A DNA stretch of 64,000 nt from Rhodobacter capsulatus (lineage in GTDB: Bacteria; Pseudomonadota; Alphaproteobacteria; Rhodobacterales; Rhodobacteraceae). The DNA is taken from the NCBI RefSeq assembly GCF_005144475.1, contig NZ_SWJZ01000012.1, positions 1 through 64,000 on the forward strand. Direction: 5' to 3'. A program made the position numbers and the translations under genes. Below the pieces are notes generated by a model. That model was not told where the DNA came from, ran no database searches, and saw only the letters and a list, made by a program, of their open reading frames with translations. Shown here one piece after another: positions 24,523-56,445 of the stretch. Each line of letters starts with the position of its first letter. Positions within the stretch are counted from its first letter, which is position 1.

Positions 24523-24661
24523 AGGAAAGAGGCCACGCTTCCCCGCCCCGGTCAATGGGGAATGGGGGGCGGATGCGGCGCCGGGCGCGCAAGACACAAG
24601 CCATTGCCCGAATTTTGGGCGCGGGCAAGCGGCGGCTTGATCGACGGGCGCGATGCGGCTA

Positions 24662-24692
24662 GCCTTTGGTCACCCAAGAAGGCGCCAAAGGC
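24662..24692. promoter_or_regulatory. inverted repeat upstream of the HTH gene
   Basis: GCCTTTGG (24662-24669) and CCAAAGGC (24685-24692), perfect 8-bp arms 15 bases apart, end 65 bases before the ATG of the small HTH gene. Placement suits an autoregulatory operator; function is not shown. Confidence 0.4.
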
Positions 24693-24757
24693 CCCGGGGT
24701 GCGGCTGACAGGGGAAATCCCGCGGCCACAACGAGAGCAGTCAAGGACGAGGCAGGC

Positions 24758-25042
24758 ATGGAAGAGATGGAGAGCGACCTCTGGCAGGCGCTTGAACGCA
24801 GCGCGGCCTTTTTCGAAGGCAGCGCGGCCTTTGAACCGATCCCGCAGGAGCGCATCAACCCGGTCGACTTGCGGCGCAAGATGGGGCTGACCCAGGCGCA
24901 GATGGCGCCGATGATGGGCATGAGCCTGTCGGGCTATCGCAAATGGGAACAGGGCCAGCGCGCGATCAGCGGCCCGGCCGCCGTGCTGTTGCGGGTGATC
25001 GAAACCGCCCCCGAAGCGGTGAAACAGGCGCTGGCGTCGTAA
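24758..25042 (+). CDS. small XRE-type HTH protein (HigA/NadS-like)
   Basis: 94 residues from ATG 24758 after GAGGCAGGC. The C-terminal half is a helix-turn-helix: DLRRKMGLTQAQMAPMMGMS then SGYRKWEQGQRAISGPAAVLLRVIE, a pattern typical of HigA/NadS antitoxin-like regulators. No toxin gene is next to it: the following 270 bases contain only the dispersed element. It may be an orphan antitoxin or a simple repressor. It is convergent with preA and is not obviously part of the pyrimidine genes. Confidence 0.8.
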   Translation: MEEMESDLWQALERSAAFFEGSAAFEPIPQERINPVDLRRKMGLTQAQMAPMMGMSLSGYRKWEQGQRAISGPAAVLLRVIETAPEAVKQALAS

Positions 25043-25060
25043 GAAAATTCCCCGCAAGGG

Positions 25061-25269
25061 TCGGGCGGAACAGGAAAAGCACCGCTTTTCCCCGCCCGCT
25101 GGCGCGCCCGCAGTCACCCGACCGTTTCCCCAAGCGGGACAGAGGGCAGCGCCCGGCCCGGCGGGCGAGAAGCGCCCGCCATGGGCGGGGCGGGCGCTGC
25201 CCGAGTGCCTTGGGGCACTCGGGGGTCACGGGGCTGATGTGTCGCCAGACCTCGGCGATGGCCTCGGTC
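25061..25269 (-). repeat. 209-bp dispersed structured element, copy 1
   Basis: It lies 44 bases downstream of the preA stop (minus strand) and also after the HTH gene. Four hairpins can be drawn. A: CGGGCGG..CCGCCCG around GGAAAAGC-acc-GCTTTTCC. B: GGGCAGCGCCCG..CGGGCGCTGCCC enclosing GGCGGGCG-agaag-CGCCCGCC. C: CCGAGTGCC-ttgg-GGCACTCGG. D: GACC..GGTC, imperfect in this copy. Two sister copies are at 31545 and 56229. Confidence 0.9.
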
Positions 25270-25313
25270 AATCTGGGTGGGCTTCCCGGGCTTCGACCGG
25301 AAAGCCCCTTGCC

Positions 25314-26615
25314 TCACTTCCCGCCGGTGCTCGCCATCGGGTTGTTCGGATGGCCGGTCCAGTTCAGATAGTCGCCGACCGGCTTGGCCGTGCGCTGATC
25401 CAGCTCGCCCTCGGCCAACTCGCGCATGGTGATGCAATTCGTCGGGCAGACCTCGACACACAGGTTGCAGGCCACACATTCCTCCTCTTTCACCGTCACC
25501 GTGCGATCCGCCGCCATCGCGATCGCCTGATGCGAGGTGTCCTCGCAGACGATGTGGCAGCGGCCGCATTTGATGCAATCCTCCTGCGCGATGCTGGCCT
25601 TGGTGGTGTAGTTCAGGTTCAGATACTGCCAATCCGTCACCTTCGGCACGGCGCGGCCGACGATTTCCCGCGTCTCGGTCAGGCCCTTGCGGTCCATGTA
25701 GTCGGACAGGCCCGAGATCATCTCCTCGACGATCTTGAAGCCATAGGTCATCACCGCGGTGCAGACCTGCACGTTATGCGCGCCCAAGGCCATGAACTCG
25801 GCCGCATCGCGCCAGGTGGTGACGCCGCCGATGCCGGAAATCGGCAGACCATGCGTGGCGGGGTTGCGGGCGATCTCGGCCACCATGTTCAGCGCGATCG
25901 GTTTCACCGCCGGGCCGCAATAGCCGCCATGGGTGCCGAACCCGTCAATCGTCGGCTGCGGCGCAAACAGATCCAGATCGACCGAGGTGATCGAATTGAT
26001 CGTGTTGATCAGCGAGACCGCATCCGCGCCGCCGCGTTTCGCCGCTTCGGCCGGTTTGCGGATGTCCGAGATGTTGGGCGTCAGCTTGACGATGCAGGGC
26101 ATGCGCGAATGTTGCTTCACCCAGCGCGTCACCATTTCCACATATTCGGGCACCTGCCCCACCGCCGCGCCCATGCCGCGTTCGGCCATGCCATGCGGAC
26201 AGCCGAAGTTCAGCTCGACCCCGTCGGCCTCGGTCTCCTCGACCCGGGCCAGGATCGCTTTCCAGCTGTCCTCGTCGCAGGGCACCATCAGCGACACGAC
26301 GAGCGCCCGATCCGGGTAATCGCGCTTGACCGATTTGATCTCGCGCAGGTTCACCTCCAAGGGCCGGTCGGTGATCAGCTCGATGTTGTTGAGCCCCAGA
26401 AGCGTGCCATCGGGCCCGTGAATCGCGCCATAGCGCGGCCCGGACACGTTCACCACCGGCGGGCCATCAAGGCCAAGCGTCTTCCAGACGACGCCGCCCC
26501 AACCGGCCTCGAAGGCGCGGCGGACGTTCACTTCCTTGTCGGTCGGCGGCGCCGAGGCGAGCCAGAACGGATTGGGCGATTTGATGCCGAGAAAGGTCGA
26601 GGAAAGGTTCGCCAT
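25314..26615 (-). CDS. preA: NAD-dependent dihydropyrimidine dehydrogenase subunit PreA
   Basis: 433 residues. It reduces uracil and thymine to their 5,6-dihydro forms with PreT. Residues ~1-320 are an FMN barrel of the dihydroorotate dehydrogenase family, with the active-site segment NFGCPHGMAERGMG (catalytic Cys). The C-terminus carries two [4Fe-4S] motifs, CIKCGRCHIVC and CVACNLCVEVCPTNC. It follows preT after one base. Together with hydantoinase and amidohydrolase the window encodes the whole reductive pyrimidine pathway. Confidence 0.95.
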   Translation of the reverse strand: MANLSSTFLGIKSPNPFWLASAPPTDKEVNVRRAFEAGWGGVVWKTLGLDGPPVVNVSGPRYGAIHGPDGTLLGLNNIELITDRPLEVNLREIKSVKRDYPDRALVVSLMVPCDEDSWKAILARVEETEADGVELNFGCPHGMAERGMGAAVGQVPEYVEMVTRWVKQHSRMPCIVKLTPNISDIRKPAEAAKRGGADAVSLINTINSITSVDLDLFAPQPTIDGFGTHGGYCGPAVKPIALNMVAEIARNPATHGLPISGIGGVTTWRDAAEFMALGAHNVQVCTAVMTYGFKIVEEMISGLSDYMDRKGLTETREIVGRAVPKVTDWQYLNLNYTTKASIAQEDCIKCGRCHIVCEDTSHQAIAMAADRTVTVKEEECVACNLCVEVCPTNCITMRELAEGELDQRTAKPVGDYLNWTGHPNNPMASTGGK

Positions 26616-31485: not shown

Positions 31486-31544
31486 GGCCCCCCCTGCCCT
31501 GCCCGCGGGTCTTGGCCGCCGGTCTTGGCCCTCCGAACGGCGCG

Positions 31545-31752
31545 TCGGGCGAAGAGGAAAACGCATCGCGTTTTCCCGCCCGTTGCGGGCCGGTCGGCAC
31601 AGGACCGCAGTCCCAGGCGTGACAGAGGGCGGCGCCCGTCCCGGCGGGCGAGAAGCGCCCGCCGGGGGCGGGGCGGGCGCTGCCCGAGGGCCTTTGGGCC
31701 CTCGGGGGGCATCGGACCAATGATCCGCAAGGCCAAGGCGATGGCCTTGGCC
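31545..31752 (-). repeat. 208-bp dispersed structured element, copy 2
   Basis: It begins 9 bases after the cysA stop on the minus strand. Hairpins: A, CGGGCG..CGCCCG around GGAAAACGC-atc-GCGTTTTCC. B, GGGCGGCGCCCG..CGGGCGCTGCCC with one G:U pair, around GGCGGGCG-agaag-CGCCCGCC. C, CCGAGGGCC-tttg-GGCCCTCGG. D, GGCCAAGGC-gatg-GCCTTGGCC. Confidence 0.92.
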
Positions 31753-31761
31753 AGACGGAGG

Positions 31762-55149: not shown

Positions 55150-55727
55150 AGCGGCTTCCCCCAGAATTGCAGCGGTTTCACAGTCTCGCCCGCGGCGCCA
55201 AGATCCGTCCAGCGGAAATGCGCGATCACGCCGGGCAGGGGCGCATAGCCGCGCTTTTGCCAAAACCCGTCAAGCGGGCGGTAAGTGTCTGGTTTCAGGG
55301 GATGATCCTTGGGACGGATCACCGCGCAAAAGGCGCTGAAGCGGCGGCCCAGCGCCCTTGCATGGGTCTCGCGCGCGTCGAAGAAGGCGTGGCCAAGGCC
55401 CTGCCCGCGATAGTCGGGCAAAAGCACCGACTCGGCGCAGTAAAAGACCGTCTCGAGCGGCAGGCCGGTCGCGGCGAAGGGGGCGGCGAAATCTTCCGCA
55501 TGGTCTTCGAGCGGCGTGCCGGTGGCGGCGCCGACCAGCCGCGGCCCGTCAAAGGCGCCGACGACGACGGCGCCCGAAGAGCTGCGGTAGCTCTCCAGAT
55601 AGCGGCGTTCGTAATCGAGCGCGCCGTCATACAGATAGGGCCAGTCGCGAAAGACCGCGATGCGCAGCGCCGCGACATCGTCGAGCGCGGCATCCAGCGC
55701 GGCGCCGGTCAGAACCCGGGTCTGCAT
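55146..55727 (-). CDS. GNAT-family N-acetyltransferase
   Basis: 193 residues. The acetyl-CoA loop is LLPDYRGQGLGHAFFDARE (the RGQGLG form of R/Q-x-x-G-x-G/A), with a GAVVVGAFDGPRLVGAAT strand pair before it. The substrate is unknown. Its start and the stop of the preceding NTF2-like gene share one base. Confidence 0.85.
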   Translation of the reverse strand: MQTRVLTGAALDAALDDVAALRIAVFRDWPYLYDGALDYERRYLESYRSSSGAVVVGAFDGPRLVGAATGTPLEDHAEDFAAPFAATGLPLETVFYCAESVLLPDYRGQGLGHAFFDARETHARALGRRFSAFCAVIRPKDHPLKPDTYRPLDGFWQKRGYAPLPGVIAHFRWTDLGAAGETVKPLQFWGKPL

Positions 55728-56134
55728 CAGCGGACCTGACGGATCCAGTCGGCGAGGTTGTAATAGGTGGTGACGCGCTGGATCCGGTCGCCGCGCAGGG
55801 TGAAGAAGCTGCCCGCGGGCAGGATGTAGCTTTGGCCGCGCGCTTCGGGCAGGCCCGTGTCGGTGGCGACATAGGTGCCGTGGACGACAAATTCCGCCGC
55901 CGCGCGGCTGCCCGCGTCAGTCGCCATCACCACGATGTCGGTCAGCTTTTCGCGATAGCAGCGGGACATGTGGGCATTGAAATCGCGGAACTTTTCGACG
56001 CCGCGGCGGATCTGGCCCTCGTTGACGTGATGTTCGAAATCGTCAGTCAGAAGCGCCTCCATCGCCGAGGTATCGCCCCGGTTGAAGGCGTCGTAATAGG
56101 CGGAAATCACGGCAAGGGCGGCGGCGCGGGGCAT
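55727..56134 (-). CDS. SnoaL/NTF2-like small protein (ketosteroid isomerase-related)
   Basis: 135 residues from ATG 56134, with AAGGAGG 5 bases upstream; an earlier in-frame ATG at 56179 is less likely. Fold cues: AYYDAFNRGDTSAMEALLTD at the N-terminus, then DFEHHVNEGQIRRGVEKFRDF and TLRGDRIQRVTTYYN at the end. The hydrophobic pocket could bind a small ligand; no catalytic call is safe. First gene of a three-gene operon with the GNAT and CN hydrolase. Confidence 0.82.
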   Translation of the reverse strand: MPRAAALAVISAYYDAFNRGDTSAMEALLTDDFEHHVNEGQIRRGVEKFRDFNAHMSRCYREKLTDIVVMATDAGSRAAAEFVVHGTYVATDTGLPEARGQSYILPAGSFFTLRGDRIQRVTTYYNLADWIRQVR

Positions 56135-56228
56135 CGGATCCTCCTTCTGAGGCCCCATCTGTGGCATGGGCCGGGGCATTGGTCAAACCTTGGAACCGGC
56201 AGGGCATGGGGCAAAAGCGGCATGGGGT

Positions 56229-56437
56229 TCGGGCGGAACAGGAAACGCGACCCGCGTTTCCCCGCCCGCAGCGCCCGGTTGCGGCATGACCGTTTCAACC
56301 CGCAAGACAGAGGGCAGCGCCCGGCCCGGCGGGCGAGAAGCGCCCGCCATGGGCGGGGCGGGCGCTGCCCGAGGGCCTCTGGGCCCTCGGGGGTCACGGG
56401 GCTTCTGTCGCGCAGGGCCAAGGCGATGGCCTTGGCC
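56229..56437 (-). repeat. 209-bp dispersed structured element, copy 3
   Basis: It starts 8 bases after the stop of the QorB-like gene (minus strand). Hairpins: A, CGGGCGG..CCGCCCG around GGAAACGCG-acc-CGCGTTTCC. B, GGGCAGCGCCCG..CGGGCGCTGCCC around GGCGGGCG-agaag-CGCCCGCC. C, CCGAGGGCC-tctg-GGCCCTCGG. D, GGCCAAGGC-gatg-GCCTTGGCC. It fills most of the 311-base gap 56135-56445. Confidence 0.92.
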
Positions 56438-56445
56438 AAGGCCGC

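What the first reader, a model, noticed from the sequence alone, without database searches (positions are those of the whole stretch)
25061..25269. Three-copy 209-bp structured element with compensatory base changes (copy 1 and overview)
Sequence shows three near-equal-length copies (209, 208, 209 bases at 25061, 31545, 56229), all in the same orientation and each downstream of a minus-strand gene. Four hairpins can be drawn in every copy, one of them (D) only partly in this copy. Hairpin C is CCGAGTGCC/GGCACTCGG here but CCGAGGGCC/GGCCCTCGG in the others: a reciprocal T:A to G:C change. Hairpin A differs in all three (GGAAAAGC, GGAAAACGC, GGAAACGCG) and is always self-complementary. Conserved pairing with changing sequence argues that the structure itself is selected, in RNA or in cruciform DNA. 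Known REP/BIME or MITE families could be analogues; I know of no described family that matches.
Basis: partly seen in the sequence, partly recalled or inferred. Interest (0 to 1): 0.8.

Follow-up and report, generated by a model that had tools for sequence, protein, structure and literature searches.

The report
Four-hairpin repeat between converging genes
A roughly 210-letter DNA repeat that folds into four hairpins sits between the ends of facing genes at dozens of places in the genomes of Rhodobacter capsulatus and its close relatives, and in different species the same place often holds an unrelated copy pointing the other way, a turnover pattern that I found no report of.

Summary
The window's three copies belong to an unnamed family of about 210 bp: 38 model hits (the scoring cap) in the window's genome, and 38, 38 and 32 in three close relatives. 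In 107 copies the four-hairpin structure covaries strongly: 218 double-changed cells against 63 +/- 11 in shuffles. No Rfam, phage or paper match was found (15, 48-52, 54); the one plasmid hit is core-only. 71 of the 82 loci scorable on both sides lie between convergent genes (161 examined).

Unexpected result: at 45 loci shared by at least two of four genomes, orientation agrees in 99 pairs and is inverted in 95. Most same-orientation copies are orthologous (means 83-90% identical). Inverted copies are no more alike than unrelated ones (77% against 76%), and none of 99 copies has an inverted partner as nearest neighbour. Flank beyond about 20-50 nt is unaffected. So orientation changes by replacement, not by inversion in place.

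Likely function (inferred): orientation-indifferent 3'-end or insulator element between convergent genes, BIME-like but not a BIME. No RAYT/IS200 transposase in 13 genus genomes.

The parts
25058..25272 (+). copy 1 of the four-hairpin repeat (A-to-D orientation on +), between two convergent genes
   Evidence: BLAST family, covariance-model hit 211.9 bits (the copy is also in the model's own alignment), gene context
25062..25098 (+). hairpin A of copy 1 (outer 7-bp stem, 4-nt bulge, inner 8-bp stem)
   Evidence: sequence; helices 1 and 2, 97.9% and 99.1% of cells paired
25144..25202 (+). hairpin B of copy 1, the long core hairpin; B-like hairpins occur as few copies in other genera of the family
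   Evidence: helices 3 and 4, 97.7% and 94.4% paired
   Evidence: helix 5, 5 of 7 pairs with changes on both sides, 89.7% paired
25248..25269 (+). hairpin D of copy 1, with the common TC/TC internal mismatch
   Evidence: helix 6, 82.7% paired
24653..25042 (+). helix-turn-helix gene whose stop codon ends 18 nt before position 25061
   Evidence: Pfam HTH_3, E 2.9e-08
25314..26615 (-). dihydroorotate-dehydrogenase-like gene with 4Fe-4S domain, converging on copy 1 (about 43 nt from it)
   Evidence: Pfam DHO_dh E 2e-31, Fer4_21
31542..31755 (+). copy 2 of the repeat
   Evidence: 197.1 bits
31762..32994 (-). ABC-transporter ATPase gene whose 3' end abuts copy 2 (about 6 nt); the gene on the other side was not resolved
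   Evidence: Pfam ABC_tran E 1e-35
56226..56440 (+). copy 3 of the repeat
   Evidence: 203.3 bits
56446..57291 (-). NmrA-like gene whose 3' end abuts copy 3; the next gene (SnoaL-like, 55727-56179, -) runs the same way, so this site is co-directional
   Evidence: Pfam

Best explanation
SHOWN: The element is a family of about 210-bp, four-hairpin intergenic repeats (A - linker - B - C - linker - D) in the Rhodobacter capsulatus / R. viridis clade, with 32 to at least 48 copies found per genome. The structure is kept by compensatory change. Copies fill the short gap next to gene 3' ends, usually those of two convergent genes, about 10 nt from the stop codons. None of the fetched loci holds two full copies in one gap. 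Between species most loci stay occupied, but at 35 of 45 loci some species hold a copy in one orientation and others hold an unrelated copy in the opposite orientation. Segments are also exchanged between copies (mosaics).

INFERRED: (1) It works in the transcripts. As the 3' end of each converging gene it forms stable hairpins that end or protect the messenger and stop the two transcripts running into each other. A and B would serve the RNA entering from the A side, D and C the RNA entering from the D side. Orientation is indifferent because the context is symmetric. (2) A second copy can arise next to a resident. A direct pair is collapsed by homologous recombination into one same-orientation mosaic. 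An inverted pair cannot collapse that way, so one member is simply lost. That would give replacement by an unrelated inverted copy, with one copy per locus. What places new copies is unknown.
For: Family size and clade: (38, 38, 38 and 32 model hits in G000, G010, G012 and G009, where 38 is the scoring cap; 0 in 13 other genomes of the genus, 1 in G005); 48 occupied loci fetched from G010. Structure. Strand sign of wobble pairs: helix B has 98 G-T against 10 A-C cells on the A-to-D strand, helix C has 1 against 48, as expected if B is used in one transcript and C in the other. Context: of 161 loci 82 were scored on both sides: 71 convergent, 10 with one 3' end, 1 divergent; 188 of 198 stop codons found within 60 nt lie within 25 nt, median 10. 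Orientation: 99 same and 95 inverted pairs, no locus inconsistent. Identity: same 89.3% (41 pairs), inverted 77.2% (43), unrelated 76.4% (3795). Against the 95th percentile of unrelated pairs (82.95%), 45 of 45 inverted and 7 of 44 same-orientation pairs of the three close genomes fall below. Nearest neighbour: the same-orientation partner for 71 of 98 copies that have one, an inverted partner for 0 of 99 that have one. Replacement reaches only the first 20-50 nt of flank. Mosaics. At one locus (L118) a 16-nt exact remnant of the other orientation's A end lies beside the resident copy. At one locus empty in G000, a GC hairpin flanked by AAAA and TT takes its place (L154).
Against: No expression data were available, so termination or stabilisation is untested. 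Copy 1 has no U tract after its hairpins: 0 terminator-like sites in 24900-25400. At one empty site in G000 only 5 nt separate the two stop codons (L148), so the element is dispensable there. No extant inverted doublet was seen: one match per locus in 80 of 80 stretches, and no second full copy in a gap in 89 more. Remnants are not generally enriched: 3 of 239 flanks score 13 or more, against 12 of 714 background windows. With the more distant G009 the rule is less clean: 12 of 34 same-orientation pairs lie at the unrelated level. At some split loci one orientation class is not its own best match (L004 rank 4, L019 rank 27 of 27, L005 rank 22 of 40). The wobble asymmetry rests on few columns in related sequences. 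Random orientation between the two closest species means either turnover after their split or old alleles being shared; my data do not choose.
Confidence: 0.5

Rival explanations
1. A selfish non-autonomous mobile element that survives where insertion is harmless (between 3' ends) and has no host function; hairpins are needed for its own movement.
For: Repeat family, mosaics, seven empty sites of ten tested in G000, cross-locus pairs up to 93.8% identical, no U tract in copy 1.
Against: G010 is occupied at 38 of 38 two-flank G000 loci and G012 at 36 of 38, so new sites seem rare while residents turn over; no terminal inverted repeat seen by eye, no Y1 transposase in 13 genomes of the genus; same-orientation copies (89%) are nearly as conserved as flanking DNA (about 92%).
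Confidence: 0.25
2. A DNA-level site, like gyrase- or IHF-binding BIMEs (recalled), that relieves supercoils between convergent genes or extrudes as a cruciform.
For: Convergent context, indifference to orientation, near-perfect palindromes.
Against: Wobble pairs show opposite strand signs in B and C, not expected for DNA hairpins; no protein-binding data.
Confidence: 0.2
3. The compensatory changes are not selected: template switching between hairpin arms and ectopic gene conversion keep the palindromes alike.
For: Ectopic conversion between copies is visible as mosaics, and related copies inflate cell counts.
Against: The TC/TC mismatch in D persists in 78-79 of 107 copies, so arms are not corrected freely; the strand-signed G-T/A-C pattern is not predicted; both A stems and the outer B stem pair in over 97% of cells while linkers diverge.
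Confidence: 0.12
4. In-place inversion of each element by a site-specific recombinase (phase variation).
For: Orientation is split about 1:1 between species at shared loci.
Against: Inverted pairs are at or near random identity in every sub-region and in spacers and are nearest neighbours in 0 of 99 cases; no inverted repeats seen at the ends (by eye).
Confidence: 0.02

Closest known systems
BIME / REP elements of enterobacteria and pseudomonads (PMC3733652: passages read)
   Same: Repeated hairpin DNA in intergenic space, mostly between convergent or unidirectional genes; proposed roles in termination, mRNA stability and supercoiling.
   Different: REPs are 20-40 bp units, most with a GTAG or CGTC tag; here the unit is about 210 bp with four different hairpins, one per gap; no Y1 (RAYT-type) transposase in the 13 genus genomes searched.
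MITEs and PATE-like (IS200/IS605-derived) elements (features recalled)
   Same: Short, non-coding, dispersed, structured, with occupied and empty sites.
   Different: No terminal inverted repeat seen, no Y1 transposase found, few new sites, replacement at old sites.
Intergenic repeats of alphaproteobacteria such as Caulobacter CIR repeats (recalled; nothing read)
   Same: Long intergenic repeats with inverted-repeat organisation.
   Different: No sequence comparison was made; a relationship is neither shown nor excluded.
B-like hairpins of other Rhodobacteraceae genera (G018, G020, G021, G022) and a longer variant in G045
   Same: Core hairpin B; in the two G045 copies examined all four hairpins.
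   Different: Few copies found; in G020 three copies have the arms of B parted by roughly 70-95 nt; in G045 the two copies align over about 310-340 nt.

Membership tests
REP/BIME | 20-40 bp palindromic unit, combined into mosaics | tested here: not met
   Unit is 195-225 bp in 108 of 120 fetched copies; the other 12 are shorter or interrupted.
REP/BIME | intergenic, at 3' ends, convergent or unidirectional context | tested here: met
   71 of 82 loci scored on both sides are convergent, 10 have one 3' end; 79 of 161 could not be scored on both sides.
REP with RAYT | Y1 tyrosine transposase (PF01797) in the genome | tested here: not met
   0 of 13 genomes of the genus, including all four with many copies; 3 of 21 genomes searched in all. 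Assemblies may be incomplete.
MITE | terminal inverted repeats | tested here: not met
   Ends gtttCGGGCGG and GGTCAgatc share no clear inverted repeat (by eye).
MITE | target-site duplication and clean empty sites | tested here: inconclusive
   Seven empty sites found, but the spacers are also replaced, so no duplication can be read.
Rfam RNA families | covariance-model score at or above the gathering cut-off | tested here: not met
   No hit at any of the three copies (whole window); relaxed search at copy 1 best E 0.68, 14.4 bits against a cut-off of 49.5.
Intrinsic terminator | GC hairpin followed by a T run | tested here: not met
   0 sites in 24900-25400, copy 1 only.

The most novel reading that the evidence does not exclude
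At each convergent-gene locus there are two lineages of element, one per orientation, and related species carry one or the other but not both. This would be a genome-wide, orientation-coupled replacement process in which a functional 3'-end element is swapped whole, stop codon to stop codon, for an unrelated copy facing the other way.
Probability: 0.45. Interest if true: 0.75.

Novelty: new variant of a known kind. Interest (0 to 1): 0.6.

Why it matters
R. capsulatus is a laboratory model, and dozens of its gene ends carry this unnamed structured element. If it ends or insulates converging transcripts, it shows how a GC-rich alphaproteobacterium can manage without U-tract terminators at those places. 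The orientation-coupled turnover is a clean natural experiment: it keeps position and structure and changes everything else, which makes the claim that structure alone is selected directly testable, and it calls for a mechanism that the repeat families I know of do not offer.

Tried and rejected
In-place inversion was my first reading of the orientation flips; rejected it. Transfer of divergent alleles with long flanks: an early flank measure seemed lower at inverted loci, but the profile by distance shows no difference beyond 50 nt, so I dropped it. Chromosome-strand bias of orientation in G010: looked at by eye from the coordinates; both strands occur throughout; no formal test. Known RNAs: no Rfam hit at the element in the window or in the eight B-like loci of relatives. 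RAYT or IS200 mobiliser: none in 13 genomes of the genus. Carriage on plasmids or phages: one B-like hit on a Leisingera plasmid, no phage. An automatic gene-context score (80 convergent, 34 co-directional, 5 divergent of 119) misjudged window copy 3, so I replaced it by a stricter one. RNAalifold on its own gave a poorer structure (33 pairs, 8 with double changes) than the named one, which I derived from the consensus of these same sequences; slid controls favour such a structure for that reason alone.

Literature: ten searches (listings seen) and passages of PMC3733652, PMC12306157 and PMC2267715 (the word Rhodobacter occurs in the main text of none of the three). The 1997 paper on a 189-kb R. 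capsulatus segment (recalled) is not held. No report of this repeat was found there; most subscription papers are not in that library.

Full report
Observation. The three copies exist at the stated coordinates, are colinear and carry the four hairpins described. BLAST of copy 1 against the window's own genome (G000, 4.22 Mb, 170 contigs) gives 41 matches, the best at another locus with E 3.1e-65; I aligned 38 of them, most over the whole element. With a covariance model the counts are 38, 32, 38 and 38 hits for G000, G009, G010 and G012, where 38 is the scoring cap. Thirteen other genomes of the genus have none and one (G005) has a single copy. Of 61 genomes searched, 12 have any match. One other genus (G045) has all four hairpins in the two copies examined, within a longer repeat. 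Few-copy B-like hairpins occur in other genera.

Structure. On 107 copies (one full-length copy, L039, left out by oversight; 12 of 120 copies, shorter or interrupted, not aligned) a named structure of 49 pairs has 93.6% of cells paired. Sixteen pairs and 218 cells show changes on both sides; 500 shuffles gave 10.6 +/- 1.2 and 63 +/- 11, never reaching the observed values, and slid structures gave 9 to 19 such cells. The clearest cases are the A inner stem (G-C 72, C-G 22, A-U 11), B (C-G 72, G-C 23), C (five pairs with 7-25 double-changed cells) and D (A-U 51, G-C 45). Sequences are related and exchange segments, so these counts are not independent events. Wobble pairs differ by strand: helix B 98 G-T against 10 A-C, helix C 1 against 48. 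A·C on one strand is G·T on the other. This is what one would expect if B is used in A-to-D transcripts and C in D-to-A transcripts, but it rests mainly on four columns in B and two in C.

Place. Of 161 fetched loci of four genomes (orthologous loci counted separately), 82 could be scored on both sides and 79 could not. Of the 82, 71 lie between convergent genes, 10 have one 3' end and 1 is divergent. Of 198 stop codons found within 60 nt, 188 are within 25 nt of the element, median 10. In the window, copy 1 is convergent, copy 3 is co-directional and copy 2 has an unresolved left side.

Turnover. Comparing flanks in three genomes (40 copies each, the scoring cap for G010 and G012) showed occupied orthologous sites almost everywhere but inverted orientation in about half. 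A joined-flank search in G012 with 15 G000 loci found 14 occupied by gap length and one with a single flank. In G010, 8 of 8 further loci were occupied. With G009 added, there are 45 loci in two or more genomes, 99 same and 95 inverted pairs, and 35 loci with both orientations; all loci were internally consistent. G010 is occupied at 38 of 38 G000 loci with two usable flanks and G012 at 36 of 38. Conversely, of 10 loci occupied in G010 or G012 and not yet matched in G000, 7 are empty in G000, 1 holds a reduced copy, 1 is occupied and 1 was not found.

Replacement, not inversion. In the three close genomes same-orientation pairs average 89.3% identity (41 pairs, one of them a neighbouring-locus artefact), inverted pairs 77.2% (43) and non-orthologous copies 76.4% (3795). 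Each of six sub-regions of inverted pairs is at or near the random level; D is 86.0 against 82.0 with standard error 2.3. The 12-nt spacers of inverted pairs match at 0.30-0.33, as random ones do (0.28-0.30), against 0.61-0.72 in same-orientation pairs. Flank identity differs strongly only in the first 20 nt and is alike from 50 nt outward. The nearest neighbour is the same-orientation partner for 71 of 98 copies that have one and an inverted partner for 0 of 99 copies that have one. If replacement took either orientation at random, same-orientation pairs at the unrelated level should be as common as inverted ones. Below the 95th percentile of unrelated pairs there are 7 of 44 same-orientation and 45 of 45 inverted pairs among the close three; with G009 it is 12 of 34 and 25 of 26, so the rule is weaker at that distance. 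Several of the seven are mosaics with orthologous ends (L016/L094, L025/L092). At loci split two against two across the species, both orientation classes are in some cases best matches in two species (L011: 85.3% and 88.3%, both rank 1), so both lineages can be older than the species. Other such loci are less clear (L004 rank 4, L019 rank 27 of 27).

How it may happen. Same-orientation pairs include mosaics: L016/L094 have identical A and D regions around a non-orthologous interior, and L085/L142 are identical in five regions but 76% in B. Recombination between copies is therefore active. In L118 the 16 nt CTGATCCGCCCGAAAC, an exact A end of the opposite orientation, lies 9-11 nt beyond the resident copy, where G010's inverted copy has its A end. 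This is the only flank score above all 714 background windows. L101 shows a weaker 11-nt trace, within the background range, and L043 a similar one by eye. Over all flanks there is no enrichment (3 of 239 against 12 of 714). No extant doublet was found: one model match in each of 80 stretches from G009, G010 and G012, and none in one gap in 89 stretches from G000 and G010. I infer, with moderate confidence, that a second copy arises beside a resident, that direct pairs collapse by recombination, and that inverted pairs lose one member. Old alleles exchanged between species are not excluded; one pair (L079/L122) is 99.1% identical within 92% identical flanks.

Function. No expression data could be used. 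Position, symmetry of context, indifference to orientation and conserved pairing point to a 3'-end role in RNA or a topological role in DNA. Copy 1 lacks a T run. At one site G000 has a GC hairpin flanked by AAAA and TT in its place, and at another it has only 5 nt between the stops. So the role is at most helpful at single loci.

Comparison. It works like BIMEs and REPs, as described in PMC3733652 (passages read), but fails their size and transposase features. It reaches no Rfam cut-off and was not found in print in the searches listed. I file it as a new variant of a known kind, a BIME-like repeat whose orientation-coupled turnover is the unusual part.

Noticed in passing
L055, L059, L063 (genome G020), around position 1501: Three copies in which the two arms of a B-like hairpin are held apart by roughly 70-95 nt (by eye) of unrelated sequence and are followed by an AT-rich inverted pair; they look like a terminal-inverted-repeat element with variable interior.
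   Followed up: no
L174 and L175 (genome G045): The two copies in another genus share sequence beyond both ends of the Rhodobacter element (about 310-340 nt aligned at 77%), suggesting a longer ancestral or variant form; L175 has about 26 extra nt in the loop of B.
   Followed up: partly
L155 (G000, C159:17800-18650): A reduced copy that keeps hairpins C and D but has lost A and most of B, at a locus where G010 and G012 have full copies.
   Followed up: partly
L079 and L122: Copies in two species are 99.1% identical while their 1.1-kb flanks are about 92% identical, which suggests recent exchange confined to the element.
   Followed up: no
NZ_CP041156.1, 167422-167489: A B-like hairpin on a Leisingera plasmid, in a stretch without a listed gene.
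   Followed up: no
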